A DNA stretch of 64,000 bases from contig CM072512.1 of NCBI GenBank assembly GCA_036898135.1, positions 16,092,597-16,156,596 on the forward strand, given 5' to 3'. Below, piece after piece: positions 4,321 to 51,973 of this stretch (position 1 is its first letter; every line of letters begins with the position of its first letter). The stretch comes from Oncomelania hupensis. Taxonomy: Eukaryota > Mollusca > Gastropoda > Littorinimorpha > Pomatiopsidae. A model generated the notes under the pieces. That model worked only from the letters and a program-made list of their open reading frames with translations, was not told where the DNA came from and ran no database searches. The position numbers and the translations under genes are program-made.

Positions 4321-4327
4321 TTACATT

Positions 4328-17775: not shown

Positions 17776-20700
17776 CAGAGAGAGACAGACAGACAGACAG
17801 ACAGAGAGGGAGAGAGAGAGAGCGTGAAAGAGAGAGAGAGATACAATTTTCAACCAAAGATTATGAACATTGGGGATTTACCACTACTTCTTCCACACAA
17901 ATGTCTTCATCAATCATACAAATAATTTTAAATCTTGCTTCTGGCCATTCAAGTGGAGTACAATGTTATTGCCATTCCTCTCTTTGCTTAATTACCTTTA
18001 TTTGTCTCTCTCTCACACACATGCACACACACGCTCACACACACACACACAGCTGATTCATTCGTCACAATCAAAATCAAATTTAACATTATGACAGAGA
18101 GAAGCCGTGTGGTTTCTTTAGCTTATGTCAGTCAAGCACTAAGGCTCTAAGCAGCAAGTAATCTCCGAGATCTCTACCTTGCACTTGCTTGATCTAGCAG
18201 TTTATCTCACACAGCCAGAAATTCCTGACCTGGGTGAGATAATTTTATGATCTGCCCTACAAGTACTATGGGATTCCCTTTGTAAAATATTTATTTCCAT
18301 CACTTTCAGCTAATTAATTTTTATTTAGAAGGATATTTTCTATCACAATGTAAGATGTCTATAAATAATATATTTTCTCTGTAAATAACTTATTTACCTA
18401 AGCAATATATTGTTTAGGTAAATAAATCATGATATAGGTAAATCAGACATTGTTGCTAAATAAAGAATTATTTATCTATATAATGTATTATTTAGCAGAT
18501 TATGTTAAATAATGTATTATTTAGACATTTTTCTCTAAATAATAATTTGTTTTCCTATATAATGCATTATTTAGCAGAATGTGCTAAATAATTTATTATT
18601 TAGAAGATGTTGCTAAATAATGCATTATTTACATAAAGAATTCATTGTGTGGGGACTTCAATTTTCATTATTTAGGTGATTCGTATGTAAATGTGGTATT
18701 ACTGTGATGTTATATGGTAGTAATAAAGAAAATTGCAAAATCATGATTTTATGCCGTTTTGTGATCTAAAATGAGGCAACTACTTTATTTCACTCTATTT
18801 TTTCTTAGTTCGCAACAGTATAATTATTATACCAAACTGCAACGGCAACGGCTCCAAAAAAGAGGGATTTATCATTAATTATGCATTGGCGTCCTTGCCT
18901 TCAGAGTACTTCTGCCATGTTTCTTGTCATTCCGACCTGCAAATTCCTGGTAGTTTCGAATAAGCTGAAACTTTCCGTTTGAAACTAAAAACATAATTCA
19001 ACTCAAAAGAACAAACGGAAACACAGTCTCAACACAGTTTTTGGGTAAATGAATACAAAAACAACAGGTTTTTTTTCTTCTGATGGAGATGTTACAAAAT
19101 GAACACTCCCGCACAAAACTGACCTTGACCTTTTCTTTGTGTTCGGGAGATTACAGACGTTTTATCTTCGAATTTGTGGAGTAATTTATTTTAAAATATA
19201 AATAATTAATATACATTTTGGATACAATTTTTGGAAGTGAATCCTGGAATCCCCTAAATAATTAAAATTGCAAACCCTACCTAAACAATGAATTGTTTAC
19301 GTAAATAATGCATTATTTAGCAATATCTTCTAAATAATACTTACTTTAGCAAATTCTGCTAAATAGTGCATTATATAGGAAAAATATATCATTATTTATA
19401 AACAATTCTAAATAATACATTATTTAACACAATATGCTAAATAATAAATTATACAGGTAAATATTTTTTTTTTATTTAGTAACAATGCTATATTTGGCTA
19501 TATCATGATATATTTAGGTAAACATTGTATTATTTGGCTATATCATGATATATTTAGGTAAACATTGTATTGTTTAAGTAAATAATACGTTATTTACAGA
19601 GAAAATAACTCATTTAGAGAAATCTAACATTAGTTTGTAAACAAATGATTATTTAGAGAATATGCTTTTATGTAAAGATTATTTACCTAAAAGTGTAAAA
19701 TTATACCGAAAAATCTAGCAAATAAATATTTTACCTTAAAAAATTCCAGAAAGTACAATGTAGACCAAAATATTGAATAAACCCTAAGTTACAATTTTTT
19801 GATTTGATCAAACTTTAAGAGACCTATAATGTGTGCAAACTCAAGTCAAATATTTAGTACTATCCTGAAGTTCAATTTAATTGACAACCTCAAGCACATA
19901 GAACCAGGCAGTTTGAACTACAATACCAATACAAAGGCAAAAGCAACCATACCAGATCTGACTGCTTTACAACGAACGACTCATGAAATTCAACTTTCTT
20001 AAGCCAGTTGGGGCTAGACAAGAGGAAGTGAAATTCCAGACTTTGTGAGATACTACTTTGTGAATTGTCTGCTTCTGTTGCTAAGAACAAGCCTTCGGTT
20101 AAACTGAGAAGAAATTCCCACTGAAAGAGATGCCTGAAACTGAAAGTGAAGGTATACGAATAAAGTCTGTTTTTGAGATGACTTTGCATTTAATCTTCTA
20201 GTGAGTAGTGTTCCTGTATTGTGGGCGACTCGAGCTGGCATTTTAAAATAAAACTGGGGGAAATCACCTTATCGTCACATCATTAAAAATACTAGATCAA
20301 AAGGTTAAAGGGAGTGCAGTTAGCCCACTGGTGTACTCCGTGTACTCCAATGGCAGGCGATAACATTGCAGCCTGTACCGACAGTAGTTCAAATGCAGTT
20401 AACAGCCTGGGGGCAAGGAAGGGGAGAGGAGGGGGGGGGAACTTGCGACACTGTGCTCCTACTCCTTCAGATGAGAGTATAAACTAAGGTCTAATCTGTA
20501 CACGCACACATTCCACCACACTGACTTTAAAGATCCTGACGCTCATGTCCTAGACGTGGAAGTGCTGGCTACATAAATACATCCGCACGCACCAGGTCCC
20601 TTTTCCCCATCACTGGTCGCCCAGGATCGTGCTCAGTCATCTGGGAGTCAGACTATGAGCCCAAAGGTTGCAAGAGGATGCCTCGAGCAGCTTGAGTTAG

Positions 20701-23700
20701 ATCCTGCAAGCCAGCGGCTTGAGCGACTCGTGAGCTGGTAAAGTGCTACCAGATAAAGAGCTATATAAAAGTGATTCAATAAATAATGTTGCAGTAATTA
20801 TACTTACGGAAAAAGTCCTTCTTTGCTATGTTCTTTGCACACAAAACTGAAACAGAAATAATAAGACAAAAATTAATGTATTGAGAATAGAAAGAAAGAT
20901 GAAAATCTTCACAAAAAATAAGACAAAGATGTGCACCTTTTCTGTGATCTTTAATAAGCTGTAGTAGTAAAAGACATACTGGCATATGTATGCCTGGTGT
21001 TTCAATAATAAATTTCAAACAAGATTTTTTTTCATCAGTCATTTTCTTTAAGTTTTAACAACACAACTACAAACAAATGGCAATGACCTATGGAATTAAT
21101 ACCCTCTCCTCTTGGAAGTCTTATGTTCATATTCATACTCACTTTTTTGTGTTAGGTTTGACACCTTTTCAACTAAAATACTTTGTGCACACCCGACTAA
21201 GTAAAATGTTGCTGCTGATGCTGGTGAAGATAATAATGGTGACAGTGGAGATCCTATCCTATCTATCCTGTCCCATAACCAGAAGGTCGTAGGGGCACCA
21301 CAGATGATCGTTTAACCAGCATACTCCATCTTTCTCTGTCCTCTGCAGCCCTCATGGCTTCGCTCAGTGTCAAACCAGTCCATTCTCGAATGTTGTCCTC
21401 CCACCTCTTTTTCGGTCTCCCCCTTCTTCTACCTCCTTGCACTGTGCCTTGCAGAATGGTCTTTGCAAGGCCTGATGATCTGGTGACGTGGCCATACCAT
21501 CGGAGTTTCCGTTTCTTCACCACTGTGAGCAGGTCATCGTGTTGTCCAATGGCTTGTGTGATGGTCTGTCGGACTTCGTCGTTGGTGATGTGTTGGGTAT
21601 AGGAAATGCACAGAAGTCTTCTGTAGCACCTCATCTCCATGCTTTGTATTCTTCGTTGGAGATCTGCTGTGAGGGTCCATGCTTCGCAAGCATATAGGAA
21701 GATGGAGATGACCAGAGAGCGCAGCAGTCTTACTTTGGAATGTAGACTGATGGTTCTGTCTTTCCAAATGGGCTTCAACCTTGTCAGGGCAGCAGTTGTT
21801 TGTGCGATCCTGGAGAGGACTTCCTGTCGAGACCCATTGTCTGACACAATGGCTCCTAAATATTTGAAGCTGTGCACTGTGTTGAGGGATTGGCCTTGTA
21901 CTTTGATGTCCGTGTTGATGCCATTGGTGTTGTTGGTCATCATTTTGGTCTTCTCTGCACTTATTTCCATTCCATAAGCTCTGGAGGTGGTGTCAAGCCT
22001 CTGTACAAGCTGTTCAAGTTCTTGTTCCTCTCCAGCCAATCCATCAATATCATCCGCAAAACGAAGATTGGAGATTGCTCTGCCCCCTATGCTGACTGTG
22101 CCTTCGTGATCTGCAAGAGCATCTGACATGATGCGCTCTAGGAAGATGTTGAAGAGTGTTGGAGAGAGTAGGCATCCTTGACGCACACCGATTGTTGTTC
22201 TGAACCAGTTCCCGATGACGCTGTTATGGAGGACTGCACTGGTAGCCTTGTCATACAGGCTTTTGATGACTTCTATAATTTTAGGGCTGATGTTGTACAC
22301 TTTCATGGTTGCCCATAGAGCTGCATGCCAGACTCGGTCAAATGCCTTCTTGAAGTCTATGAACACATGATATAGATGTTGTTGGTGCTGTAGGTATTTC
22401 TCACAGATTATTCTGAGGTTGAAAATCTGTTCAGTGGTACTTCGCCCTGCCATGAATCCTGCTTGTTCTTCAGCTATGATTTGTTCAGCTTGTGGTTTCA
22501 ATCTGTTGAGTATTATTTTCAGGAGGACCTTGCTGGGATGGCTGATGAGGCTGATGGTGCGGTAATTTTCACACTCCTGAAGGTTACCTTTTTTGGGAAG
22601 AGTGATGACAAGCGACTGGGTCCATGGTGTAGGCCATTCCCCACTCTGCCAGATCTTGTTACAGATAATGGTGAGAGCATCAGTCATCGCTTCTCCTCCT
22701 GCTTGTAGCAGTTCCGCTGGTATGTTGTCCACTCCCGCTGACTTCCCTTTCTTCAGCGATTGCACTGCTGCCTCAACTTCTTCCCGTGGAGATAAAGCAG
22801 GATTTATTCATAAGTTGTTTCTTCTACATGCAAGAGAGGGGGTTTCGGGAGTGGAATAAAATATAATTTCCATCTAATGTGTTTAAACAAGCAGCAGAAT
22901 GCAATTCCGCTAACGCCTGTTAGATGCATTATATGCTGGGTAAAATCATATGGCCTTGAAATCAAGTCTCTTCTCCTACATAATCCCAACAATCACTAAA
23001 CCCATTAGTGCCCTAACCCCATCAACCTCTCGTCTCCTACTGCCTCTCTCTAGGATACAACTACTTATACCAAAATAGTTTAAAGACAAAATCAGAAAAT
23101 GTCGACTTTGTTTCTTGCAGTTACTTCCGCTGAACAATATGAAAATTGCATTGTCCAACAGCAGTAACATTTCCCATAAACCCCACACCCAAATGCACAA
23201 TCTATGGCTATGTTAAGTATGGCTACTGCGCGCAACACAAGTACTTCCCACTTATTTAAGTGTAATGTGACTAACAGTTCATTATTGTATCACCAACACT
23301 CATTTCCTTCATACGCATTTTTTTAATCCTCTCAAAATTAGGCACCATTCGATGCATCATCAGGGCTGGTCCCATCCTACATTGATGGATTATCTAAATA
23401 TAATACAGAAACTCTCTCTCTGTCTCTCTCTCTCTCCCTTCTCTCTGTGTATGCTTACATGTATGTATGTGCATGAGTTTGTGTCTATGTCTGAGTGGGA
23501 TAGAGGGAAACAAAGAGTATGTGTGCATGTGTGAAAGAGAGTGAGTGTGGGCATGTGTGCGGGGGGTGGGGGGAGAGAGAAAGAGTCTGCAGATTTATTC
23601 ATGTGTTAATCAACCAAATACTACACAGATAGTACTTTACCCTTGCTGGGAGACTTTCTGTCTATGTAGGCAGCAGGGATAGCTCAGTCGTCAGAGCGCA

Positions 23701-26700
23701 CGACTTGTGTACATGCGTCTCGGGCGACGTGGGTTCGATTCCTGACTTCACCAAACTATTTTGTGATTGCTGGATAGTAGTGGCCAGCGCTTTGAGAAGC
23801 TCTCTGAGCTTGTAAGTGCGCTATGTAAGAGTAATCTCTTTCTTTTTTTATGTTTTCTGCTCAATCAGCAGACTTAAATATCATTTCGAACTCTCCTGCT
23901 TTTAATCGGTTTTACGCCTTATCTGGCATAGATCTGTAATTTGTTGGTTTGGGGAAATCCTACTACTAGTTCCTCCTCAAATCTGTCCACATTCTTGTAG
24001 GGTAGGGTTTAGAATTATGATAAAGTCAAACAGTACCACCACCTCAAATCTCCAAACAAAGAGATCAATAAAGAGAAAGGTGACCGTATGGTGGATAGAC
24101 AGAACCTAAGACCTTAGTTGAAGAAGGGGTGGTAAGATTTTTTTTTTAAAGTCAACACGAGGGTAGGGGTGGCGAGGATAATGTATATATACCTACAGAG
24201 CCCCAAGATTAGACTGTCACTTCAGTGTAGCTAGATCTGTGTAGGGTACTGTTTAGTTTTGGAGCTGTCTGCATTCCTGTTTTAATCGCCACCAGCAGAA
24301 TGGCATTGGGAATAAATAGCATAGGATACCAACAAATCTATAAATGTGTGTCTAACCCTCTGTCACTCTGTATGTATATATATATGTCAAGGTCTGATGG
24401 AGTATTTAAATGTTGTCAGAGCTGGAATGAAGAACTAACTTATTGAAGAATGAAAATATTCAGTTGTACTTGCATAATAATAATTTTATTATACTATTAA
24501 GCTTCATCTAGTATTATCAGGTTATTGGACATTTTATTTAATAAATCAATGACCTTTTTTCTTATTTGTAAAATAAAAATAATGTTTCTAAAAACAGGGC
24601 TGAGACTATTAAACTATAGATTAAACTAAGTAATCTTGATAGTCACACTGAACAAAATATTACATGTCTGAACCATGATTAACAGAGACCATGATAATAC
24701 AAATATTTCATATATATAATATGGCCTACACCAAGGACCCAGTCGCTTGTCATCACTCTTCCAAAAAAAGGTAACCTTCAGGAGTGTGAAAATTACTGCA
24801 CCATCAGCCTCATTAGCCATCCCAGCAAAGTCCTCCTGAAAATATTACTCAAAAATAATGTTTCTAAAAACAGGGCTGAGACTATTAAACTATAGATTAA
24901 ACTAAGTAATCTTGATAGTCACACTGAACAAAATATTACATGTCTGAACCATGATTAACAGAGACCATGATAATTGAAATTCCAAGCTTAACAAATCATA
25001 ACTGAAGAACAAGCCGGATTCAGGGCAGGGCAAAGAACCACTGAGCAGATTTTCAACTTCAGAATAATCAGCGAGAAAAACCTACAGCGCCAACGACATA
25101 TATATCATTTGTCTGTAAACTTCAAGAAGGCATATGACCAGTCTGACATGCAGTTCTGTGGGCAACCATGAGAGTGTACAACATCAGCCCTAACAATAAC
25201 ATTATTAAAGTCATCAAAAGGCTGTATTACAAGGCTACAAGTCCTCCACAACAGCGCCATATGGAACTGATTCAGAACAACAATCGGCGTACGTCAAGGA
25301 TGTCCACTCTCTCCAACAATCTTTAACATCTTCCTGGAGCGCATCATTTCCAGATGCCCTTGCAAATCATGAAGGCACAGTTAGCATAGGGGATAGAACA
25401 ATCTCCAACCTCCGTTTTGCAGATGACATTGATGGATTGTCTGGAGAAGAACAAGACCTTGAACAGCTGATACAGAGGCTTGAAACCACCTCCAGAGCCT
25501 TTGGAATGGAAATAAGTGCAGAAAAGACCAAAATGATGACCAACAACACCAATGGCATCAACACGGACATCAAAGTCCAAGGCCAATCCCTCAACACAAT
25601 GCATAGCTTCAAATATTTAGGAGCCATTGTATCAGACAATGGGTCCCAACAGCAAAGTCCGCTCCATGATTGCACAAACAACTGCTGCCCTGACAAGGTT
25701 GAAGCCCATTTGGAAAGACAGGACCATCATCCACACTCCAAAGTAAGTCTGCTGCGCTCCCTTGTCATCACCATCTTCCTATACGCTTGCAAAACATGTA
25801 CCCTCACAGCAGACCTACAACAAAGAATACAAAGCATGGAGATATGGTGCTACAGAAGACTTCTGGGCATTTCCTATACCCAGCACATCACCAACAATGA
25901 AGTCCGACAGACCATCACACAAGCCATTGGACAACACGATGACATGCTCACAGTGGTTAAGAAACTGAAACTCCGACGTCATGTCACCAGAGCATCAGGC
26001 CTTGCAAAGACCATCCTTCAAGGCACGGTGCAAGGAAGCATAAGAAAAGGAGACAAAAAAAGAGGTGGGACGACAACTTTCGAGAATGGATTGGCTTGAC
26101 GCTGAGCAAAGCAATGAGGGTTGCTGAGGACAGAGAAAGATGGAGTACACTGTCACTGGTTAAATGATCATCTGTGGTGCACCAATGACTTCGAGTTACA
26201 GGATAGAATAGGATGGATGGATTTATATATATGGCTAGTGTGCGTTCGTGTACAAAATCAGTGGTCTAATAAACACAGAAACAGTTTCTATGAATAAAAC
26301 ATTCCCACATTTCTAGTGAATTTTACCAACATTTTCAAATAAAGTTCATGAGTTTGGGGGTGGTCTTAAGCATAAGCCACAAGGGAGAGACGTGTGTTTT
26401 TTGAATGAAAATATAGCAATGCTGAGGAGGTGACATGAACAGCCAACACATCGGTAACTGTTCATTCAAGCAGGTCAACACAGCAGATTGAGGGGTTGGA
26501 ACACGAGCTCTCGAAACATTAACACAGTCATTCAACCAGCAATGGAATGTAATAAACAGAGGTATCCCATAGACAAGTCTGCCAATAATGAAATCATAAA
26601 AGCTGAATTTAGATAGATATGCATCAACAAATCTCCTCATGCCACAGATCCAATCACTGGGTTTTAATAAATACAGTTTTAAAATATTGTAATAAGAGTC

Positions 26701-32230: not shown

Positions 32231-32357
32231 GTATAATACTACAACTTAAAATTAAAAAAATTTGACAGACACCATTGCAACACTGGACACAATCACACTT
32301 GCGAGGCGCCGTATTAGTAAAATGCTATAAATAACATTCTTTAATGTTTTCTATGTA

Positions 32358-32490
32358 CATTCTATAATAAATAAATAAATAAATTCTATAATAAATAAAT
32401 AAATTCTATAATTTATAAATAATTTCTATAATAAACAAATCTACTCTATAATATAGAAATATATTCTATAATATAGAAATTCGTTCCATG
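32358..32490. repeat. degenerate ATTCTATAATA-type short repeats
   Basis: About six imperfect copies of a 15-26-bp AT-rich unit (ATTCTATAATAAATAAATAA and variants) inside the split TIR element. Confidence 0.7.
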
Positions 32491-32594
32491 TATAGGCAGT
32501 TACACTTATGTTCTTGGATTAAATTCTATATTATAGGATAGATCCTATGTGCAAAGAGTGTATTGTACGTATATATAGAATGAATTATATGCAC

Positions 32595-34310
32595 TGTCAA
32601 AGCCCCCCCTTACGGTCCTTCGTTTCTCTTACCATAAAGGGGAACTCTGAGCAGTGTATGCAACCATACGTGAACAACGGATGAATAGATAGAGACAAGT
32701 ATTACGTTGGCAAAATAAAACAACAATTTATTCACATGAACATAACATGGAGTCGTAAATGAATAACTAAAATTTATAAAGGTGATAAAATCAAACGACA
32801 GAATGAAATGTTCTTTGTTTTAAATAAATTAAATGGTTCTACACAGTATTCTCGTTCAGTCTCTTTGTTTTCCTTTTCTACTGTTCACTCATTGTTCGCA
32901 CACAACCTATGCACTGTTTACAAATTTGTTGCTACTACTGTTATAACGATTTCAGTTCACAAGTCCCGTTTTACAAATACATATCACACTCCTGCGATCA
33001 AACCTTTGCAATACGAAATTGCATAATAACAAAAACGTCCCGAAGACACTAGAGCATGAACTCGCTCAACGCAGGAGTGAAATGTATATATGTCCCGGGA
33101 ACACAGTAGGCAAATAAACTAAAAATTGTCAATGCACTAGATGTAATCGATAAGTGCATACACCTCGAATGTCACTGGGACTGTAGCTGCTACGATTAGA
33201 TGCATCCGCCGTGGTCATCCAATATTTCAAAGTCTGTGGTGAAGAAGCGAAGGCAAAAAGTTAACTGGCAAAAAGTCTATTATAATACAATCGGTGAAAA
33301 GTGATGGTAAACCCAAAAACAAAGTCGAAGTTAAAGTTGAAGTTGAAGGTAAAATCGAAGTTGAAGATGAAACCAAAGGCAAAAAGCGAAGGGTACACTG
33401 CAACATAACCCATACAAAATCTTCTAAGAATTTGAGTAACAATTTATACATGCTTCCTGATGCAATTGAAAACTCAACCATTTTCCTTAATAATAATAAT
33501 CGCTAACTCTTGTATTGTAACAATCACAAATGTAAATCTAACGCATGTATGAATGAATGACTGCAACCTTGAATGTTTTGTATGCTTGGAAGAATAATGA
33601 TTGTAATAAATATGGTATCACTTATTCGAGTATAATACTTCCCCATAATATTTTAGCCCCACAACATAATGATAACCAACAATGACACGACAAAATACGG
33701 ACCACAGAAATAAATGACAACAAAGAGACACCCGACTAGCCAGTGAAAACACCCAAGTCCACACTTACTCAACTACCCGTGGATACGGTGATGCGGCTAA
33801 GGTCGGATACGTCTCTTCATCCGCAGCATTCCTTTTGGTACAGGTAGGTCAACGGTCAGGTCTACTAGTCGTCTCGATCTTCATTGACTAAAACAAACAG
33901 TCGAACTTGCACCAGTTTCAAGGTCGAACTCTTTCTCCCTCATCGTTCTCAAACGACTTCTGGTAAAAACTCAAGTTCTTGTCGTAGGGCACCGCTACGT
34001 GAGGATATCACGTACGTATTTCCTTAAGCGTACAGTTGACGGATAAAGGATTAGCAGGGACGAAAAACGATTCAACACACTGCTCCTAGATTCACTGTTT
34101 CTCGGACCTCCATGTAACGACCAAAATACCTGTCTTCTTTCTCTTTCGTCATTTCCTCTTTTCTACGACAATAAGTTACGTCACACTTTTCATTTACTTT
34201 TGTCCCGGCTTATTCAAAGGCACACAAAACGATGATTCATAGGCACTTGCGAGAAGACCACCTATCTACAAACAACAATATAAAGTTCAAACTGAGTGTG
34301 GGTCGTGACA
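32595..34310 (-). repeat. 3' LTR of the Gypsy element
   Basis: The left-hand LTR, same length as its partner and identical wherever compared line by line. It follows the polypurine tract at 34311-34322. This identity argues for insertion too recent for LTR divergence. Confidence 0.95.
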
Positions 34311-34322
34311 TACCCCCCCCTC
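34311..34322 (-). other. polypurine tract
   Basis: On the minus strand the bases before the 3' LTR read GAGGGGGGGGTA, a typical plus-strand priming tract. Confidence 0.85.
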
Positions 34323-34363
34323 AAGACAAAACCTTGGTTTTGTTCAAACTCAAAGTTCACGAC

Positions 34364-37300
34364 TTACACGTTTCTGCTCAAAAAGTCTGCAGTGACGTTT
34401 TCCTTTCCCGGAATACTTTCAATAACCAGTGGAAACGACTGCATCAACAGCGCCCATCTCATCAACCTGCTGCTGGTAGTTTTCGATTTCTGAAGGTATT
34501 TCAGCGGTTGGTGATCAGTTTGTACGATGACTGTCCGATCGTACACATATTGCTGAAATCGTTGAAGTCCCCAAATCAACGCTAAACATTCCTTCTCAAT
34601 CGTTGAGTAGTTCTTTTCTGCGGCAACTAACTTCCGGCTGACACAAGCCACTGGTTGGAGTCCGTGACCCTGATCTTGGCATAGTACTGCTCCAATACCT
34701 GTCTCTGACGCGTCTGTTTGCAAAACAAACGGTTTTTCGCCATCTGGCAGACAACATACAGGACTAGAGCACAACCTTTCTTTCAAAGTGTTGAAAGCTC
34801 TTTCGCATGCTTCCGTCCATGCGACTGGTCCTGTTTTTCCTCCCTTCGTCAGATCGGATAGAGGTGCGGCTATGGCTGCAAAGTTTGGTACAAACCTCCT
34901 GTAGTAGCTCGCTAACCCCAAAAACGACCTCACTTGTTTCTTTGTAGTTGGTTGTGACGTTTCTCCGATGCGATCCATTTTCTGACGGTCTGGTTGAATC
35001 TTACCTCGCCCTACCATGTGTCCCAGATACTCCAAACTCTGAAATCCTAGGAAACATTTTGACGGTCTTGCAGCTAACTGCACTTCGCGGAGTCTCTGAC
35101 ACAACGCTCTTAGACATTCCAAATGCCTTTCTTTTGTTTGAGTAGCTATCATCAAATCATCCATGAAGTTGTCTATTTCAGGCATGTGAAGGGGTGCCAA
35201 TAACTTCCGCATCATTCGGGAAAATATAGCTCCGGCAGTCTTCAATCCAAAAGGCATCACGCACCACTGGAACTGACCTTCAGGAGTGGTGAACGCTGTC
35301 TTTTCTTTGTCCTCTTTTTTCATTGGGATTTGCCAATACCCTTTTGACAAATCTATTTTGCTCAGATATTTCGCTTTTGCGAGCTTCGCGAACAAAAAAT
35401 CGATATCAGGTAGAGGCTCAGCGTCGAAGACGATGTTACGATTCATTTTGCGAAAATCAACGCAAAATCGTATTTGTCCATCTTTTTTTTTCACTAGCAC
35501 AATCGGTGAGCTATACGGTGACGTTGCTCTCTCAATGACCCGTAATTTCATCATCGTTTCTACTTCATCCTTCACCACCTGCATTTGTGAATGAGGTAAA
35601 GGGTATTGTTTTGTACGGACTGGCTCTTCATTGATCATCTTTATCTCGCACGTATCCAAGGTGCATCGTAAAGGGAAATCAGTGAAAATGTCTGCATAGT
35701 CTGACACTATGTTTAGGATGTCCTCATGAATTTCTGGACATTCTGGGTCAACGTGTACATCTTTCGGACCCTCGGTCGCCACTAACGGACACGTTGGAAT
35801 GTCGTTGCCCACTTGTTCTTCTTTCCATTGATCGTCTTCTGTCACTACTGCATCGACTGTCACTCTTTCTCTGCATTCTTTCAACAGATTGACGTGGAAG
35901 AGTTTAGTTTTCCGTCCTACTGATATGCGATAATCGCATTCGCCAACTTTTTCTATGACTTCATAGGGTCCTTGCCAAGCCATTTGGAGTTTATTATGTT
36001 TAGTGGGTAGCAACAGCAACACTCTGTCGCCTGCTTTGAAAACCCTGGGTTTCGCTTTTCGGTCAAAGTAGTGTTTCTGGCGCTCTGCAACACCTTTCAT
36101 ATGTTCTTTTGCTATCTGGCACGTCTCCTCGATGCGATTGCGTAGATCGACTACGTATTCACTGCTTACTTTCACTTCTTCAGCAGCAATCTCCTTCGAC
36201 CATAGCTCTCTCAACACGGCCATCGGTCCTCTGACTGTTTTTCCGTATAGTAGCTCAAACGGTGAAAATCCAGTAGCCTCTTGAGGTACCTCTCGGTAGG
36301 CGAAAAGAAGAGCTGGTATGTACCGGTCCCACATCCGTGGCTGTTCTGTAGTCAGTTTTCTCAGCATGGTCATCAGAGTGCCGTTAAACCGCTCAACCAG
36401 CCCGTTACACTGAGGGTGGTAGGGTGTGGTGGCTTTTCCATGGATGGCCAACAATCCGTTCATTTCATCCATGACTGCTGACATGAACTGCGTCCCCCTG
36501 TCGGTTAGTATTTCACGAGGGATGCCTACCCTCGACCATATGGTCCACAGAGCCTCTGCTACTTTTTCAGTGTCAATTCTTTTCAACGGAACTGCTTCTG
36601 GGTATCGTGTAGCGTAGTCGACAACTACCAAAATGTATTGGTTACCTTGTTCCGACTTTGGTGCAATCGGACCTACAATGTCGATAGCCACTCTTTGGAA
36701 TGGTTCGTCCATCAAAGGCATCTTTTGTAGGGGTACCTTGCTGACTCGACCCCTTGGTGTCACTCTCTGGCATTCAATGCATGATGCACAGTACCTGCGA
36801 ACGTCTGCGCACATACCTGGCCAGAAAAACGTATTCCATATACGTTCGCGAGTTCGTTTTCCTCCTAGGTGTCCTGCCATGGGAGGATCATGAGCTAGCC
36901 TCATGACTTCTTTTCGTAGTTTCTTGGGAACTACTAGCTGCGATGTCTCCACTCCTCGCAACTGATGCAACCTGTATAGTAACCCTTTCTTTCGCGTGAA
37001 TTTTACTGTAGCATTTCCTGACTTCAGTTCGCTCTGGGCATCAGCCAACGCTCGAACTTTTTTAAGACTATCGTCTTCTTCTTGCAATGCAGCCAACTCT
37101 GTCGGTGTGACTTCCACTCCTAGAGTTTTCGATACCTGCAAAGGTACTGTCGCTCGTTTTTCACGTCCTATTTGTCCTCTTGTTTCGACTGCTGCTGCCA
37201 CGGCACATTCACTACCATCAATGGTAACTGGGCTTCGGTAACCAGATGAAAATGTAATCCAGTTACCCAGAAGAATGTCAGGTCCCATGTGGTCAAGGAC

Positions 37301-39235
37301 GAACAGTTCAACAGTCCCTGTCACAAAGCCTGATTCAAGTTTCACCCATGCTGTAGGGTACTTTCCTGTTTTTGTCTGGTCTGCTAAGTACACTTCAACA
37401 CTCCTCCCTGTGTAATCTTCAGGTTTGACCCATTTTGAAGCAACTGCTCCCATCTCTGCTCCAGTATCACGCATGATGCGTACTGTATTTTCGTTGATCC
37501 GACCCTCACTCCACGGGTTATAGGGTTTAATAGATCGGACGTCTATTGGCGGAGTATAGATCGGTAGGGTGTCGGTCGCAATTGTAACCTGACTGACTGC
37601 ATGCGTTTTCATGCATTGCCTGGCGAAGTGCCCCTTACCCCCACACTTATAGCACTCGTCTGTATTCCTCCTGTCTCTTTCATCTCTACCGACAACTGGT
37701 CTCCTAATAGGTTCCCTCAATCTCGTTTGTGACTCGTTCGGTCTACGCTCGGGTTGACTGCTCGGTGTTCGTGGACTCGCTCTTTGGAAAACAGGTCCTC
37801 GGGATACGGCTCGTTTTACGTCCAAATGCAGTTGAGCATATTCGGCTGCTTGTGCGGCGTCTGTCGGCAATCGTTCACGCACGAACATCTCGAGCTCAGG
37901 ATTCATTACTGAATATATCTGTTCAGCCAAAAACATGTCTAACACAGACTTCGCGTCATCGATGTCTTTGTCTGCCAAGGAAAACCATCTTTCTACAGAT
38001 GTCTGCAACCGGATGAGAAATTGCGGAAAAGTTTCATTTTGTTCTTTCTTGGTCTCTCGGAACTGTCGGCGATACCATTCCGCATCGCGGCGAAAACGAC
38101 GTAACAGCGCGTTGCGTACTTCTTCAAAATCTTGAGCCTGTTCGGGTGTCAGACGCAAATACGTATCGCGCGCTTCTCCTGACAATAGTGGAGACAACCT
38201 TGCTGCCCAGCAATCTCTATTCCATCCTTGTGATTCAGCTATGAGTTCAAAATGACGCAGATAAGCTTCGATGTCTTCTCTACCATCGAAAGGGTGAATT
38301 TTCAGTCGGTAACCATCATGATGTTCTCTACGAGTTGAACGGTCAGCGAAAACTTCGCGTTCTTCTCTGATCACCTCCATCTGCATTTTCATCCGTTCTT
38401 TCTCTGCCTCCATTCTGATTTCTAATGATCTTCGTTCTTCTTCTTTGTCTTCCTCGCGTCGGCGACGTTCTTCTTCTTTCTCTTCCTCTCGTCGGCGACG
38501 TTCTTCTTCCATTTTCCTCTCCATCAGACGTCTGTCTTCTTCTTTTTCCTCTTCTCGTCGGCGACGTTCTTCTTCCATTTTTCTCTCCATTAGACGTCTG
38601 TCTTCCTTTTCTTCTTCTCGTCGGCGACGTTCTTCTTCTTTTTCTTCTTCGCGTCGGCGACGTTCTTCTTCTTTTTCCTCTTCGCGTCGGCGACGTTCTT
38701 CTTCTTTTTCCTCTTCGCGTCGGCGACGTTTTTCTTCTTTTTCCTCTTTGCGTCGGCGACGTTCTTCTTCTTTTTCCTCTTCGCGTCGGCGACGTTCTTC
38801 TTCTTTTTCCTCTTCGCGTCGGCGACGTTCTTCTTCTTTTTCCTTTCGCTCTTCTTCCATTTTCCTCTCCATTAGACGTCTGTCTTCTTCTCGCTCTCTT
38901 CGTTCTTCTTCCTTTTGGATGCCATCCACGACAAATCTCGCTAGCGCCTCTTCTCGCAGGCCTAGGCTCATACCTAATTCTCTATACTTCACGGATACGT
39001 CAATCACTTCGGACGTCTCTTGGTTCCTTGACGGTTCTACGGCTACCGCCATGCGAGGGAAACCTAAGACAGACGTACTCAGAGTCTCTTCTCTCGTCAA
39101 ACTGGACATGGTCGCTTCTCCCGATGCTCCCAGTACAATATCGGCTGAGTCGCTGCTAGGGGTGATCGATGTCCCTTCCCCACCAATCGTTTTCTTGGCT
39201 CCAGCACGTTTTGTACCTTTCCGGGTGGCGGACAT
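34364..39235 (-). CDS. gag-pol polyprotein of the Gmr1-like Gypsy element
   Basis: 1623 codons from ATG at 39235; the open frame runs about 19 codons further up but without an earlier ATG. In order: a highly charged coiled coil of 11-residue repeats rich in Glu and Arg (about residues 105-290); a retrotransposon Gag/SCAN-like capsid segment (about 310-475); a CCHC knuckle CYKCGGKGHFARQC (528-541); aspartic protease DTGAE (590-594); integrase zinc-binding HHCC (from 782); integrase catalytic Asp-852, Asp-912 and Glu-948; a GPY/F-like module (about 1087); RT with KIDLSKGYW (Asp-1295) and FMDD (1358-1360); RNase H with QTDAS (Asp-1508), TDHQPL and a final TADFLS. Every key catalytic residue I looked for is present. 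There is no frameshift or stop between gag and pol, so Gag:Pol ratio must be set some other way, for example by processing. The protein acts in retrotransposition particles. Confidence 0.95.
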   Translation of the reverse strand: MSATRKGTKRAGAKKTIGGEGTSITPSSDSADIVLGASGEATMSSLTREETLSTSVLGFPRMAVAVEPSRNQETSEVIDVSVKYRELGMSLGLREEALARFVVDGIQKEEERREREEDRRLMERKMEEERKEKEEERRRREEEKEEERRRREEEKEEERRRRKEEKEEKRRRREEEKEEERRRREEEKEEERRRREEEKEEERRRREEEKEDRRLMERKMEEERRRREEEKEEDRRLMERKMEEERRRREEEKEEERRRREEDKEEERRSLEIRMEAEKERMKMQMEVIREEREVFADRSTRREHHDGYRLKIHPFDGREDIEAYLRHFELIAESQGWNRDCWAARLSPLLSGEARDTYLRLTPEQAQDFEEVRNALLRRFRRDAEWYRRQFRETKKEQNETFPQFLIRLQTSVERWFSLADKDIDDAKSVLDMFLAEQIYSVMNPELEMFVRERLPTDAAQAAEYAQLHLDVKRAVSRGPVFQRASPRTPSSQPERRPNESQTRLREPIRRPVVGRDERDRRNTDECYKCGGKGHFARQCMKTHAVSQVTIATDTLPIYTPPIDVRSIKPYNPWSEGRINENTVRIMRDTGAEMGAVASKWVKPEDYTGRSVEVYLADQTKTGKYPTAWVKLESGFVTGTVELFVLDHMGPDILLGNWITFSSGYRSPVTIDGSECAVAAAVETRGQIGREKRATVPLQVSKTLGVEVTPTELAALQEEDDSLKKVRALADAQSELKSGNATVKFTRKKGLLYRLHQLRGVETSQLVVPKKLRKEVMRLAHDPPMAGHLGGKRTRERIWNTFFWPGMCADVRRYCASCIECQRVTPRGRVSKVPLQKMPLMDEPFQRVAIDIVGPIAPKSEQGNQYILVVVDYATRYPEAVPLKRIDTEKVAEALWTIWSRVGIPREILTDRGTQFMSAVMDEMNGLLAIHGKATTPYHPQCNGLVERFNGTLMTMLRKLTTEQPRMWDRYIPALLFAYREVPQEATGFSPFELLYGKTVRGPMAVLRELWSKEIAAEEVKVSSEYVVDLRNRIEETCQIAKEHMKGVAERQKHYFDRKAKPRVFKAGDRVLLLLPTKHNKLQMAWQGPYEVIEKVGECDYRISVGRKTKLFHVNLLKECRERVTVDAVVTEDDQWKEEQVGNDIPTCPLVATEGPKDVHVDPECPEIHEDILNIVSDYADIFTDFPLRCTLDTCEIKMINEEPVRTKQYPLPHSQMQVVKDEVETMMKLRVIERATSPYSSPIVLVKKKDGQIRFCVDFRKMNRNIVFDAEPLPDIDFLFAKLAKAKYLSKIDLSKGYWQIPMKKEDKEKTAFTTPEGQFQWCVMPFGLKTAGAIFSRMMRKLLAPLHMPEIDNFMDDLMIATQTKERHLECLRALCQRLREVQLAARPSKCFLGFQSLEYLGHMVGRGKIQPDRQKMDRIGETSQPTTKKQVRSFLGLASYYRRFVPNFAAIAAPLSDLTKGGKTGPVAWTEACERAFNTLKERLCSSPVCCLPDGEKPFVLQTDASETGIGAVLCQDQGHGLQPVACVSRKLVAAEKNYSTIEKECLALIWGLQRFQQYVYDRTVIVQTDHQPLKYLQKSKTTSSRLMRWALLMQSFPLVIESIPGKENVTADFLSRNV
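38430..38860 (-). repeat. 33-bp tandem repeat inside gag
   Basis: Roughly 33-bp units encode the 11-residue block RRREEEKEEER, with two interspersed DRRLMERKMEE variants. The repeat builds the charged coiled coil of Gag. Unit number could vary between copies without breaking the frame. Confidence 0.85.
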
Positions 39236-39533
39236 TTTGCTAGCCGACCACCTTTTCTTGTATAATTGGTAAACAACAAATCTATTTACCAACTATATAT
39301 CTCAGAGTTCAAATAACTCAACAGTTATACCACGGTTTGGCTCAGATGACACTAAGTTGTATTATAGTAAAGTGTGGGCTTGGTTGCTTACCTTATTACT
39401 GTCGGGTGCTCTAAGTGCGCCCACGCGATTCAAAACGCTCCAGCACCCGCCAACCACCCACGTCACTTACTCTGATTGTATGGTATAACACAACAATGTC
39501 AACGTAATTCTATCTCCTCCATTCATCCGTTCG

Positions 39534-39551
39534 ATCCCACCGCTGCCACCA
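39534..39551 (-). other. primer-binding site, tRNA-Leu type
   Basis: The plus strand here reads ATCCCACCGCTGCCACCA, the 3' end of animal tRNA-Leu(AAG/UAG) including CCA. The minus strand is therefore complementary to the tRNA. It lies four bases inside the 5' LTR. Confidence 0.85.
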
Positions 39552-39555
39552 AATA

Positions 39556-41271
39556 TGTCAAAGCCCCCCCTTACGGTCCTTCGTTTCTCTTACCATAAAG
39601 GGGAACTCTGAGCAGTGTATGCAACCATACGTGAACAACGGATGAATAGATAGAGACAAGTATTACGTTGGCAAAATAAAACAACAATTTATTCACATGA
39701 ACATAACATGGAGTCGTAAATGAATAACTAAAATTTATAAAGGTGATAAAATCAAACGACAGAATGAAATGTTCTTTGTTTTAAATAAATTAAATGGTTC
39801 TACACAGTATTCTCGTTCAGTCTCTTTGTTTTCCTTTTCTACTGTTCACTCATTGTTCGCACACAACCTATGCACTGTTTACAAATTTGTTGCTACTACT
39901 GTTATAACGATTTCAGTTCACAAGTCCCGTTTTACAAATACATATCACACTCCTGCGATCAAACCTTTGCAATACGAAATTGCATAATAACAAAAACGTC
40001 CCGAAGACACTAGAGCATGAACTCGCTCAACGCAGGAGTGAAATGTATATATGTCCCGGGAACACAGTAGGCAAATAAACTAAAAATTGTCAATGCACTA
40101 GATGTAATCGATAAGTGCATACACCTCGAATGTCACTGGGACTGTAGCTGCTACGATTAGATGCATCCGCCGTGGTCATCCAATATTTCAAAGTCTGTGG
40201 TGAAGAAGCGAAGGCAAAAAGTTAACTGGCAAAAAGTCTATTATAATACAATCGGTGAAAAGTGATGGTAAACCCAAAAACAAAGTCGAAGTTAAAGTTG
40301 AAGTTGAAGGTAAAATCGAAGTTGAAGATGAAACCAAAGGCAAAAAGCGAAGGGTACACTGCAACATAACCCATACAAAATCTTCTAAGAATTTGAGTAA
40401 CAATTTATACATGCTTCCTGATGCAATTGAAAACTCAACCATTTTCCTTAATAATAATAATCGCTAACTCTTGTATTGTAACAATCACAAATGTAAATCT
40501 AACGCATGTATGAATGAATGACTGCAACCTTGAATGTTTTGTATGCTTGGAAGAATAATGATTGTAATAAATATGGTATCACTTATTCGAGTATAATACT
40601 TCCCCATAATATTTTAGCCCCACAACATAATGATAACCAACAATGACACGACAAAATACGGACCACAGAAATAAATGACAACAAAGAGACACCCGACTAG
40701 CCAGTGAAAACACCCAAGTCCACACTTACTCAACTACCCGTGGATACGGTGATGCGGCTAAGGTCGGATACGTCTCTTCATCCGCAGCATTCCTTTTGGT
40801 ACAGGTAGGTCAACGGTCAGGTCTACTAGTCGTCTCGATCTTCATTGACTAAAACAAACAGTCGAACTTGCACCAGTTTCAAGGTCGAACTCTTTCTCCC
40901 TCATCGTTCTCAAACGACTTCTGGTAAAAACTCAAGTTCTTGTCGTAGGGCACCGCTACGTGAGGATATCACGTACGTATTTCCTTAAGCGTACAGTTGA
41001 CGGATAAAGGATTAGCAGGGACGAAAAACGATTCAACACACTGCTCCTAGATTCACTGTTTCTCGGACCTCCATGTAACGACCAAAATACCTGTCTTCTT
41101 TCTCTTTCGTCATTTCCTCTTTTCTACGACAATAAGTTACGTCACACTTTTCATTTACTTTTGTCCCGGCTTATTCAAAGGCACACAAAACGATGATTCA
41201 TAGGCACTTGCGAGAAGACCACCTATCTACAAACAACAATATAAAGTTCAAACTGAGTGTGGGTCGTGACA
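39556..41271 (-). repeat. 5' LTR of the Gypsy element
   Basis: The right-hand 1716-bp LTR, upstream in the element's minus-strand sense. Terminal TGTCA/TGACA. Small frames inside (for example 40188-40442 minus and 40255-40467 plus) recur unchanged in the other LTR and look like low-complexity by-products rather than genes. Confidence 0.95.
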
Positions 41272-41389
41272 TGCACATAACACGCACTGTGTGTACATAG
41301 AAAGAATTGCATACATAGAATGTTATTTATAGCATTTTACTCATACGGCACCTCATACACGTGAAAATTAAGCCTTCTGACCGAGACCA

Positions 41390-42712: not shown

Positions 42713-42780
<68 letters not shown>

Positions 42781-42781
42781 C
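42713..42781 (+). repeat. ATC microsatellite
   Basis: About 23 ATC units followed by mixed TCG/ATC repeats to about 42860. At the 3' end of the Rex1/CR1-like remnant, so it may have begun as a LINE tail. Confidence 0.96.
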
Positions 42782-43015
42782 GCGTCGTCGTCATCGTCAT
42801 CATCTCTCGTCGTCGTCATCATAATCATCATCGTTGTAGTCATCATCATCATCGTTGCTGTCGCCATACAATCGTTTATGTAGGCCTATCGTCGTTATCG
42901 TTGTCGGCATCTTAATTATTAATTATTGTTTTGCAAGGCTGGAAGCAATTTTTCCAAAGTGAACTCTTGGACGAATAAATCTCTTGTTGTTGTTGTTAAG
43001 TAAATTAAAGTCCCC

Positions 43016-45337: not shown

Positions 45338-46585
45338 TATCCTGACCCGTAACCCGGAGGTCGTAGGGGCACCACAGCAGATGATCGTTTAACCAGCATA
45401 CTCCATCTTTCTCTGTCCCCAGCAGCCCTGATGGCTTCGCTCAGTGTCAAACCAGACCATTCTCGAATGTTGTCCTCCCACCTCCTGATGATCTGGTGAC
45501 GTGGCCATACCATCAGAGTTTCCGTTTCTTCACCACTGTGAGCAGGTCATCGTGTTGTCCAATGGCTTGTGTGATGGTCTGTCGGACTGCGTCGTTGGTG
45601 ATGTGTTGGGTATAGGAAATGCCCAGAAGTCTTCTGTAGCACCTCATCTCCATGCTTTGTATTATTCGTTGTAGATCTGCTGTGAGGGTCCATGCTTCGC
45701 AAGCATATAGGAAGATGGAGATGACAAGGGAGCGCAGAAGTCTTACTTTGGAATGTATAGACTGATGGTCCTGTCTTTCCAAATGGGCTTCAACCTTGTC
45801 AGGGCAGCAGTTTTCTGTGCGATCCTGGAGAGGACTTCCTGTCGGGACCCATTGTCTGACACAATGAATCCCAGATATTTGAAGCTGTGCACTGTGTTGA
45901 GGGATTGGCCTTGGACTTTGATGTCCGTGTTGATGCCATTGGTGTTGTTGGTCATCATTTTGGTCTTCTCTGCACTTATTTCCATTCCATAAGCTCTGGA
46001 GGTGGTATCAAAGCCCCTGTACCAGCTGTTCAAGTTCTTGTTCCTCTCCAGCCAATCCATCAATGTCATCAGCAAAACGAAGATTGGAGATTGCTCTACC
46101 CCCTAAGCTGACTGTGCCTTCGTGATCTGCAAGAGCATCTGACATGATGCGCTCTAGGAAGGTGTTGAGGAGTGTTGAAGAGAGTAGGCATCCTTGACGC
46201 ACACCGATTCTTGTTCTGAACCAGTTCCCGATGACGCTGTTATGGACGACTGCACTGGTAGCCTTAATTGTCATACAGGCTTTTGATGACTTCAATAATT
46301 TTAGGGCTGATCGCGATGTTGTACACTTTCATTGTTACCCAGAGAGCTGCATGCCAGACTCGGTCAAACGCCTTCTTGAAGTCTATGAACACATGATATA
46401 GATGTTGTTGGTGCTGTAGGTATTTTTCACAGATTATTCTGAGGTTGAAAATCTGTTCAGTGGTACTTCGCCCTGCCTTGAATCCTGCTTGTTCTTCAGC
46501 TATGATTTGTTCAGCTTGGGGTTTCAACTTGTGGAGTATTATTTTCAGGAGGACCTTGCTGGGATGGCTGATCAGGCTGATGGGG
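45338..46585 (-). mobile_element. RTE-type LINE, 5'-truncated, mutated
   Basis: RT motifs appear in pieces: QAGFKAGRSTTEQIFNLRI, FIDFKKAFDRVWH, GVRQGCLLSSTL and NLRFADDIDGLAGE, then RRLLGISYTQHITND. Small indels split the frame and a deletion near 45485 removes part of the C-terminal tail. The 3' end abuts an AC microsatellite. Confidence 0.88.
46008..46527 (-). pseudogene. RT palm fragments of the RTE-type LINE at 45338-46585
   Basis: Two overlapping frames (46264-46527 and 46008-46295) together cover the fingers and palm with FADDIDGL. A short insertion (ATCGCG near 46314) and others disrupt continuity. Confidence 0.8.
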
Positions 46586-47196
46586 CTGTGTTACACTCAT
46601 TCGATGTTGGTGTTTTTCTATCAGTAGTTGATTCAGCCCCAATGCTTGAATTCTCCTGATAGGTGTAAAGTCGGATTCGTTTATCCACGCAACCCGTTCA
46701 ATCAGCATGCAAGTCACAGAGTCGACGTATGAAGTTTTCCACTTTTATTCAGCACACATCAACAACTGCATACAATCGCCTTTTCACTCTCAACTTTTTA
46801 CTTTCCAACTCACTATCAACAGCACATAATTATATAGCCTCTCTCTTCTCCCGAACACCATGGATCAATCGCGTATGACGCAATTTAACCAATCGCTAAT
46901 TCTAACTTCGTCATCACTGTCTTACGTCATACATCTTTCTAAACATTCCAGGAACGTTCTCAAACTTCGACATTTATCAGGAAGTTTCTATCGACAGTAA
47001 ACACGCGAATCTAGAGAATTCTCTAATAATATCGATTAACAAAAATTACCAACGTTATACAAAGCTTCTTCTAACAACAACGCAAACTCAAATCAAAGGT
47101 AAATACACTCTATTATTGAATACTTTGCAAAACGAAACGATTAGATCTATCGTGCGCGTTTCAGACATACTACCATTCGCGTTTCAACGTAACAGG

Positions 47197-49041: not shown

Positions 49042-49725
49042 ATGATGTACAGCCATTTGCGGGCAGGGCGAAGTACCACTGAACAGATTTTCAACCTCAG
49101 AATAATCTGCGAGAAATGCCTACAGCACCAACAGCATATATATTATGTGTTTGTAGACTTCAAAAAGGCGTTTGACCGAGTCTGGCATGCAGCTCTGTGG
49201 GCAACCATGAGAGTGTACAACATCAGCCCTAAAATTATTGAAGTCATCAAAAGCCTGTATGACAAGGCTACCAGTGCAGTCCTCCACAACAGCGCCATCG
49301 GAAACTGGTTCAGAACAACAATCAGTATGCTTCAGGGATGCCTACTCTCTCCAACACTCTTCAACATCTTCCTAGAGCGCATCATGTCAGATGCCCTTAC
49401 ACAAGTTACAGATCACGAAGGCACAGTCAGCATAGGGGGGGGGAGAGCAATCTCCAACCTTCGTTTTGCGGATGACATTGATGGATTGGCTGGAGAGGAA
49501 CAAGAACTTGAACAGCTGGTACAGAGGCTTGACACCACCTCCAGAGCCTATGGAATGGAAATAAGTGCAGAGAAGACCAAAATGATGACCAACAACACCA
49601 ATGGCATCAACACAGACATCAAAGTCCAAGGCCAATCCCTCAACACAGTGCATAGCTTCAAATATTTAGGAGCCATTGTATCAGACAATGGGTCCCAACA
49701 GGAAGTCCTCTCCAGGATCGCATAA
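49042..49725 (+). pseudogene. RT palm fragment of the LINE at 49045-50182
   Basis: A 227-codon frame with FADDIDGL, ending at a TAA where the family reads a Gln codon. It carries small in-frame insertions (around the run of Gs at 49437) compared with the copy at 21263-22765. Confidence 0.85.
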
Positions 49726-50182
49726 ACAACTGCTGCCCTGGCGAGGTTGAAACCAAGTTGGAAAGACAGGACCATCCGTCTACATTCCAAGTAAGGCTAC
49801 TGTGCTCCCTTGTCATCTCCATCTTCCTATATGCTTGCAAAACATGGACCCTCACAGCAGCTCTCCAACAAAGAATACAAAGCATGGAGATGAGGTGCTA
49901 CAGAAGACTTCTGGGCATTTCCTATACCCAGCACATCACCAACGACGAAGTCTGACAGACCATCACACAAGCCATTGGACAACACGATGACCTGCTCGAA
50001 GTGGTGAAAAAAAAGAAACTCCGATGGTATAGCCACGTCACCAGATCATCAGGTCTTGCAAAGACCATCCTGCAAGGCACAGTGCAAGGAGGTAGAAGAA
50101 GAGGGAGACCGAAAAAGAGGTGGGAGCGATCATCTGTGGTGCCCCTACAACCTCCGAGTTATGGGATAGGATAGGATAGGAT
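49045..50182 (+). mobile_element. RTE-type LINE, 5'-truncated
   Basis: Starts within GRSTTEQIFNLRI, has FVDFKKAFDRVWH and NLRFADDIDGLAGE, then stops near 49723, and ends GGATAGGATAGGATAGGAT. A short possible target duplication ATTTGCG occurs at both edges. The target lies between the ORF at 48241 and BTAF1. Confidence 0.88.
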
Positions 50183-50694: not shown

Positions 50695-51027
50695 TTAAAG
50701 TAGCTTTGGAGAGCTGTGAAGAGAGAGGGGAAGAGAGTTCCAAGTTGAAGGGCCAAGCACTGAGAAGGATCGACAGCCAGCAGAGGAGTGTTTGTAGCAG
50801 GGTATATGAAGCATGAGGGTGTCATAGGAAGAACGAAGATTTCTAGAAGGCTTATACAATTGAATGTTTTGGGTGAGGTAAGAAGGGGCTAAGCCATGGA
50901 CACGCTTGTAACAAATAGCGATTTTGTAGATAATTCTATGAGACACTAGAATCCAGTGGCGTGAATGTAGAAGAGGAGTGATATGGTCAGATTTTTTTAT
51001 TTTTGAGAACCAGACAAACGCAAACAC
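50695..51027 (-). pseudogene. CR1-like RT C-terminal fragment
   Basis: Encodes KIAICYKRVHGLAPSYL and RSFSVLGPSTWNSLPLSL. The frame begins in the target-site duplication of the nested RTE copy, so its first residues are not original. Confidence 0.85.
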
Positions 51028-51973
51028 GACGGTTGGAGATTGCTCTTCCCCCTATGCTGACTGTGCCTTCGTGGTCTGCAAGGGAATCTGACATGATGCG
51101 CTCTAGGAAGATGTTGAAGAGTGTTGGAGAGAGTAGGCATCCCTGACACACACTGATTATAACCTTCGTTGTGTGGATGGCATTGATGGATTGGCTGGAG
51201 AAAAACAAGAACTTGAACAGCTGGTACAGAGGTTTGACACCACCTCCAGAGCCTATGGCATGGAAATAAGTGCAGAGAAGACCAAAATGATGACCAACAA
51301 CACCAATGGCATCAACACAGACATCAAAGTCCAAGGCCAATCCCTCAACACAGTGCATAGCTTCAAATATTTAGGAGCCATTGTATCAGACAATGGGTCC
51401 CGACAGGAAGTCCTCTCCAGGATCGCACAAACAACTGCTGCCCTGGCGAGGTTGAAGCCAATTTGGAAAGACAGGACCATCAGTCTACATTCCAAGGTAA
51501 AGCTGCTGTCATCTCCATCTTCCTATATGCTTGCGAAACATGGACCCTCACAGCAGATCTCCAACGAAGAATACAAAGCATGGAGATGAGGTGCTACAGA
51601 AGACTTCTGGGCATTTCCTTTACCCAGCACATCACCAACGACGAAGTCCGACAGACCATCACACAAGCCATTGGACAACACAATGACCTGCTCACAGTGG
51701 TGAAAAAACGTAAACTCCAATGGTATGGCCACGTCACCAGATCATCAGGTCTTGCAAAGACCATCCTGCAAGGCACAGTGCAAGGAGGTAGAAGAAGAGC
51801 CCGAGAATGAAAAAGAGGTGAGAGGACAACATTCGAGAATGGACTGGTTTGACACTGAGAGAAACAAACAGGGTTGCTGAGGACACGGAAAGATGGAGTA
51901 TGCTGGTTAAACGATCATCTGTGGTGCACCCACGACCTCGGAGTTATGGAATAGGATAGGATAGGATAGGAGA
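51026..51973 (+). mobile_element. RTE-type LINE with 5' inversion, nested in a CR1-like LINE
   Basis: 51026-51165 is family sequence in minus orientation; 51166-51973 continues the family in plus orientation up to the GGATAGGATAGGATAGGA tail. A 12-bp duplication GAGAACCAGACA flanks the whole. The inverted 5' part is the product expected from twin priming. Inside, the frame from 51173 carries GMEISAEKTKMMTNN before breaking. Confidence 0.88.

What the first reader, a model, noticed from the sequence alone, without database searches (positions are those of the whole stretch)
32595..41271. Intact Gmr1-like Gypsy element with integrase ahead of reverse transcriptase
Seen: one 1623-codon frame in the order Gag, protease, integrase, RT, RNase H, between two 1716-bp LTRs that look identical, with a 5-bp target duplication, tRNA-Leu primer site and polypurine tract. 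Known: most Ty3/Gypsy elements have integrase last; the Copia-like order within Gypsy defines the Gmr1-like group first described from fish and later other animals. Inference: a full, probably still mobile member in this genome.
Basis: partly seen in the sequence, partly recalled or inferred. Interest (0 to 1): 0.75.

Follow-up and report, generated by a model that had tools for sequence, protein, structure and literature searches.

The report
Snail-type Gmr1 retrotransposon with variable Gag rod
This is a complete, very recently copied jumping element of the Gmr1-like Gypsy kind, with its integrase placed ahead of its reverse transcriptase, and its shell protein carries a charged rod whose length changes from copy to copy while the parts compared elsewhere stay almost identical.

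Summary
The RT is Ty3-type; the 37 integrase-first rows of the tree form one 100/100 branch with echinoderms, a hemichordate and bivalves, the element lying in its gastropod half. Its Gag carries a SCAN-type capsid domain. In the host genome, 201 exact 5' junctions, identical LTRs in 8 of 11 scored copies and excess silent changes in integrase and RT show recent spread. New here: a charged Gag rod of 11-residue units with 13 lengths among 29 scored copies; a rod occurs in 74 of 119 integrase-first Gags. No fish Gmr1 sequence, transcript or insertion polymorphism could be tested. A known kind of element; the gastropod branch and the hypervariable rod are the variant.

The parts
32590..32594 (.). 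target-site duplication, left copy (TGCAC on +)
32595..34310 (-). 3' LTR, 1716 bp, identical to the 5' LTR
34311..34322 (-). polypurine tract GAGGGGGGGGTA next to the 3' LTR
34364..39235 (-). single Gag-Pol frame, 1623 codons from ATG, stop included
34433..34819 (-). RNase H domain (aa 1492-1620)
   Evidence: PF17917/PF17919
35015..35494 (-). reverse transcriptase (aa 1267-1426, FMDD motif)
   Evidence: PF00078; best PDB match Ty3 RT 4ol8, E 2.1e-79
35870..36931 (-). integrase: H2C2 zinc domain, DDE core, SH3/GPYF-like end (aa 788-1141), upstream of RT
   Evidence: best PDB match Ty3 7q5b, E 9.9e-33
37262..37507 (-). aspartic protease region (DTGA; aa 596-677), sub-threshold in Pfam
37607..37657 (-). 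CCHC zinc knuckle of Gag (aa 546-562)
37832..38080 (-). SCAN-type capsid domain in Gag (about aa 405-487)
   Evidence: PF02023 E 2.4e-8, 34.1 bits over cut-off 27; fold
38381..38920 (-). charged helical rod of Gag (aa 125-304); 33-nt/11-residue tandem array at 38433-38849
39534..39551 (-). primer binding site, 18 nt complementary to host tRNA-Leu(AAG/TAG) 3' end
39556..41271 (-). 5' LTR, 1716 bp
41272..41276 (.). target-site duplication, right copy (TGCAC on +)

Best explanation
An autonomous LTR retrotransposon of the Gmr1-like branch of Ty3/Gypsy. Inferred cycle: the LTR drives a full-length RNA, one frame gives a Gag-Pol polyprotein that the protease cuts, SCAN/Arc-type capsid domains and the zinc knuckle package the RNA, tRNA-Leu primes reverse transcription, and the integrase (encoded ahead of RT) inserts the DNA with a 5-bp duplication. 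Shown: parts, order, kinship, many young copies at different sites, past purifying selection on integrase and RT/RNase H. The Gag rod is probably a long charged helix between the N-terminal part of Gag and the capsid domain; its 33-nt units are gained and lost, most simply by slippage or template switching during reverse transcription, and usually keep the frame (inferred).
For: Structure. Ty3-type enzymes; in the Ty3 chain 7q5b the RT match (598-1009) precedes the IN match (1087-1442), the reverse of this element. Order in relatives: 259 of the 304 distinct proteins listed by three searches are single integrase-first. Tree: 37 integrase-first rows against 12 integrase-last rows, branch 100/100. 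Capsid. Recent spread: 201 exact 39-bp junctions, 0 of the backward control; the 40 RT places scored (of 1044 candidates; the window's own is one) differ by about 0-1 of 601 bp by their bit scores; LTR pairs identical in 8 of 11 scored copies; perfect 5-bp TSD in 9 of 11, two of them in simple repeats where a match means little. Selection: 27 silent and 22 replacement distinct changes in integrase plus RT/RNase H where 574:2003 sites are expected, p 6e-7, or 3e-4 with a silent share of 0.30. Rod variation.
Against: No transcript, particle or new insertion was seen. The whole-protein Pfam scan did not list SCAN at E 0.01; it appeared only when the Gag piece without nearly all of the rod was scanned, and 2 of the 5 relatives scanned (P0017, P0050) lacked it. 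Foldseek gave no match at E 0.001 or better; the best, Arc, is E 3.6e-3, and TM-scores over the whole query are low, 0.23-0.33 for the first ten. Gag CA/NC (12 replacement, 4 silent changes) and protease (5 replacement, 1 silent) show no constraint. The rod model is a single-sequence prediction with mean pLDDT 61. The scored copies were picked for similarity, which favours young ones.
Confidence: 0.93

Rival explanations
1. The integrase-first order arose separately here, so the element only works like Gmr1 and is not kin to it.
For: No protein named Gmr1 or from fish with this order was among the 304 listed by three searches (each lists only its best 120 of thousands). The 2018 mollusc survey listed six known Gypsy clades in molluscs, Gmr1 not among them (passages).
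Against: All 37 integrase-first rows, including echinoderms and a hemichordate, are on one side of a 100/100 branch of length 0.87; likewise 87 and 48 rows. The Gag has the SCAN domain that a frog survey reported in Gmr elements only (passages of PMC4131045).
Confidence: 0.05
2. The rod array is a neutral minisatellite: the DNA slips and Gag tolerates it, with no function in its length.
For: Lengths fall on 33-nt ladders (18 of 29 share one residue class mod 33), and unit gain or loss keeps frame without selection. Gag CA/NC shows no constraint among copies.
Against: A charged rod of 30 residues or more lies ahead of the capsid domain in 74 of 119 integrase-first Gags with room for it, with different units in different snails. 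28 of 44 rods are periodic at p<0.05, and 21 of these 28 have a best lag of 11, 18, 7, 22 or 29, near whole helical turns. Rows are related, so this is not a clean test.
Confidence: 0.4
3. A Ty1/Copia element, as the integrase-first order would suggest.
For: Order alone.
Against: RT and IN match Ty3 best in the PDB; Pfam hits are RVT_1 and RNase H models, no Copia RT model (name recalled) among the 11 families. No Copia sequence was put in a tree.
Confidence: 0.01
4. A recently fixed or gene-converted dead element rather than an active family.
For: Gene conversion can make LTRs identical; 5 of 29 arrays are out of frame or carry a stop, and several copies have broken frames.
Against: Distinct perfect TSDs at nine sites, many near-identical copies, open frame in this copy.
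Confidence: 0.06

Closest known systems
Gmr1-like clade of Ty3/Gypsy (type element in cod, recalled; also fish, frog, crustacean, annelid in papers seen)
   Same: Integrase upstream of RT; single Gag-Pol frame; SCAN-type Gag; RT clade with deuterostome members
   Different: LTR 1716 bp against 337-518 bp in the pufferfish-order Gmr1-4 table (passage of PMC11117352); long variable charged rod in Gag; gastropod half of the tree
Integrase-first elements of echinoderms, hemichordate and bivalves reached here (Lytechinus, Strongylocentrotus, Patiria, Pecten, Magallana, Glandiceps)
   Same: Order; 54-58% RT identity in the five whose values were printed; many with precomputed SCAN, not all
   Different: Separate half of the branch (99/96) from the gastropod half with the query (99/96)
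Ty3
   Same: RT, RNase H and IN families
   Different: Integrase after RT; SCAN and rod not tested in Ty3
Mouse LINE-1 ORF1p length polymorphism region
   Same: Length-variable stretch in the coiled coil of the first-frame protein of a retrotransposon (passage of PMC3600994)
   Different: Non-LTR element, unrelated protein; works-like comparison only

Membership tests
Gmr1-like Ty3/Gypsy | Integrase domain upstream of reverse transcriptase | tested here: met
   feature stated in PMC6238403 and PMC8220671 (passages)
Gmr1-like Ty3/Gypsy | RT/RNase H groups with integrase-first elements including deuterostome ones | tested here: met
   100/100;
Gmr1-like Ty3/Gypsy | RT groups with the type element of cod or other fish Gmr1 | not tested
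   no such sequence among those listed
Gmr1-like Ty3/Gypsy | SCAN-type capsid domain in Gag | tested here: met
   over Pfam cut-off (not listed in the whole-protein scan); structure; link to Gmr1 from passages
Ty3/Gypsy superfamily | Ty3-type RT, RNase H, IN | tested here: met
Ty1/Copia superfamily | Copia-type RT | tested here: not met
   one search lists no Copia RT model; best is Ty3; no Copia row in a tree
LTR retrotransposon, intact copy | LTR pair, TSD, PBS, PPT, open coding frame | tested here: met
Endogenous retrovirus | env frame | tested here: not met
   53 bp lie between the stop codon and the 3' LTR; the longest other sense stop-free stretch is 212 codons, inside the Gag array region
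Active element | Transcript and polymorphic insertions | not testable with these tools
   no RNA or population data held

The most novel reading that the evidence does not exclude
Gmr1-like Gags carry a modular charged helical rod ahead of the capsid domain. In gastropod lineages it is rebuilt repeatedly from short repeats that respect whole helical turns, and its length is the fastest-changing part of the element, tuned by assembly or by escape from a host factor.
Probability: 0.25. Interest if true: 0.7.

Novelty: new variant of a known kind. Interest (0 to 1): 0.5.

Why it matters
It shows the integrase-first Gypsy lineage as numerous and young in a gastropod-like genome, although the 2018 mollusc survey did not list Gmr1 among its clades; its first step took LTRs of 80-1500 bp, shorter than this LTR, though it also used similarity searches. 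It ties SCAN, the domain that vertebrate transcription factors are reported to have taken from such a Gag, to a recently spreading invertebrate family. The copy-to-copy rod variation gives a natural length series for asking whether Gag architecture is under selection.

Tried and rejected
IMG/VR: 11 stretches matched a pattern, none a relative. PDB sequence search of the capsid piece gave nothing significant, best E 0.13. Counting LTR starts for solo LTRs did not complete. Rfam found nothing in the window at gathering scores. Paper searches; of these I saw listings (titles, starts of abstracts) and passages of nine papers (searches cover ten papers with PMC3600994). None showed a length-variable Gag rod in a Gypsy element or Gmr1 in gastropods; the library is open-licence only.

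Full report
What is there. The element is on the minus strand, 8677 bp between the outer LTR ends, with 1716-bp LTRs that differ at 0 positions, a 5245-bp interior, a GTGCA duplication, and one Gag-Pol frame of 1623 codons from the ATG at 39235. The PBS begins 4 nt after the 5' LTR and pairs for 18 of 18 nt with tRNA-Leu; ten places in the same genome carry the matching tRNA end, six were fetched, and ARAGORN calls all six tRNA-Leu, anticodon AAG or TAG. There is no env frame: 53 bp separate the stop codon from the 3' LTR, and the longest other sense stop-free stretch (212 codons) lies in the Gag array region.

Kinship. RT/RNase H matches Ty3 RT best among solved structures (E 2.1e-79) and the integrase matches Ty3 integrase (E 9.9e-33). 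Three protein searches, each listing its best 120 of 7293, 5946 and 5666 hits, gave 304 distinct proteins; mapping the window's domain pieces on them gave the integrase-first order with a single RT in 259 of 304. Most of the 45 others are fused gene models of ordinary integrase-last elements (Cordylochernes, frogs, fish, Trichinella, plants). Not counted either way are rows such as Penaeus P0248 (INT-RT-RT-RH), P0139 and P0263 (split RT), and P0216 and P0242, which lack an integrase match. Trees of RT/RNase H put all integrase-first rows on one side of a branch in each of three builds: 87 of 144 rows (SH-aLRT 100), 48 of 63 (100/100), 37 of 49 (100/100). The rows were chosen by me. Within the branch, echinoderms, a hemichordate and bivalves form one half (99/96); named gastropods and the query form the other (99/96). 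Nearest rows are unnamed (P0004-P0006, up to 77% identity). Strongylocentrotus, a deuterostome, is in the branch; I recall, without a source seen here, that the group was first described from deuterostomes. A crustacean paper reports Gmr1-like elements as the first in protostomes, and the Lamellibrachia paper reports them in an annelid (passages).

Gag. The piece without nearly all of the rod hits SCAN above Pfam's cut-off; the whole-protein scan did not list it at E 0.01. In one search, 4 of 6 proteins pass for SCAN. The AlphaFold model of the capsid piece (44 rows, mean pLDDT 86.4) matches Arc, dArc and SCAN chains: the first eleven hits have Foldseek probabilities 0.80-1.00 and E-values 3.6e-3 to 0.15, none reaching 1e-3; TM-scores over the whole query are low, while SCAN crystal chains reach 0.68-0.76 over their own length. 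Ahead of the capsid lies a 180-residue stretch with 80 E, 57 R and 20 K, coded by 12.8 copies of a 33-nt unit. A single-sequence model shows two long helices with a weak middle (mean pLDDT 61).

The family in its own genome. The assembly is 1.45 Gb. The exact 39-bp LTR/PBS junction occurs 201 times, its backward control 0 times. A 606-bp LTR piece gave 41 places, all reported as 100% (40 of 550 candidates scored), and a 601-bp RT piece gave 40 places within about one mismatch (40 of 1044 scored); both include the window's own, both are lower bounds biased to the youngest. Of 12 copies examined (the window and 11 loci), 11 had both LTRs scored: 8 pairs identical, 3 with one or two differences; 9 of 11 have perfect 5-bp TSDs, at nine different places, two of them (L012, L018) inside simple repeats. 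Zero differences in 1716 bp gives an upper 95% bound near 0.17% by the rule of three; I have no rate for this host. Some copies have broken frames and one has a large internal deletion. Counting distinct changes in 11 copies against the window, integrase plus RT/RNase H has 27 silent and 22 replacement changes where sites are 574:2003 (p 6e-7; 3e-4 if 30% of changes were silent by chance), so these enzymes were under purifying selection while the family spread. Protease has 1 and 5, Gag CA/NC 4 and 12, no sign of constraint in either; all pieces together still give an excess of silent changes, p 2e-5.

The variable rod. Arrays could be scored in 29 of 32 copies (three lacked the anchors): 13 lengths from 231 to 612 nt, 24 distinct sequences, 24 open and in frame. 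366 of 406 pairs differ in length, while the 100 nt just downstream differ by 0.14% on average. Most lengths fall on 33-nt ladders: 18 of 29 in one residue class, 7 more in two others. A charged rod of 30 residues or more precedes the capsid in 74 of 119 integrase-first Gags with room for one, and occurs in 1 of 45 other models, a weak control because those are mostly fused models whose Gag part was not checked. Among named rows printed there, Patiria and Ylistrum have none. Of 44 rods of at least 50 residues, the query's included, 28 are periodic beyond 200 shuffles at p<0.05, 21 of them at 11, 18, 7, 22 or 29 residues, near whole helical turns; the single rods at 12, 19, 20 and 31 do not fit. 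Related rows are not independent, and residue phasing of a helix alone could favour such lags.

Reading. The element is an intact, very young member of the Gmr1-like lineage. The order itself is known. What the listings and passages I saw did not show is the gastropod half of the lineage and the hypervariable Gag rod. Whether the rod length matters to the element is open; neutral slippage and selection both fit parts of the data. The best working analogy, not kinship, is the length polymorphism region in the coiled coil of mouse LINE-1 ORF1p (passage).

Noticed in passing
3810-4321, 21251-22807, 24973-26218, 45338-46589, 49042-50126, 51019-51971: Six stretches of one non-LTR RT family in both orientations, 86-97% alike in the pieces over 300 bp; RVT_1 over its cut-off in three of the frames scanned, DUF6451 only below its cut-off.
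   Followed up: no
32303-32359 and 41292-41354: The flanks hold a 63-bp inverted pair, 82% alike; with flanks joined the target looks like an AT-rich inverted-repeat element of about 370 bp.
   Followed up: partly
58906-59217: Tandem repeat with 64-bp spacing, 89-93% alike.
   Followed up: no
18347-19631: Cluster of short inverted and direct repeats in the most AT-rich part of the window.
   Followed up: no
42713-42853: CAT triplet run of about 47 units.
   Followed up: no
own genome, one search list (about the first hundred of 201 places are shown): Three pairs of same-strand 5' junctions about 6.8-6.9 kb apart suggest tandem copies that share an LTR.
   Followed up: no
L016: A copy lying between inverted LTR pieces of the same family, as if nested in another copy; it has no matching TSD.
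   Followed up: no
L017: A copy whose LTRs are identical to the window's but whose interior lacks part of integrase and RT.
   Followed up: no
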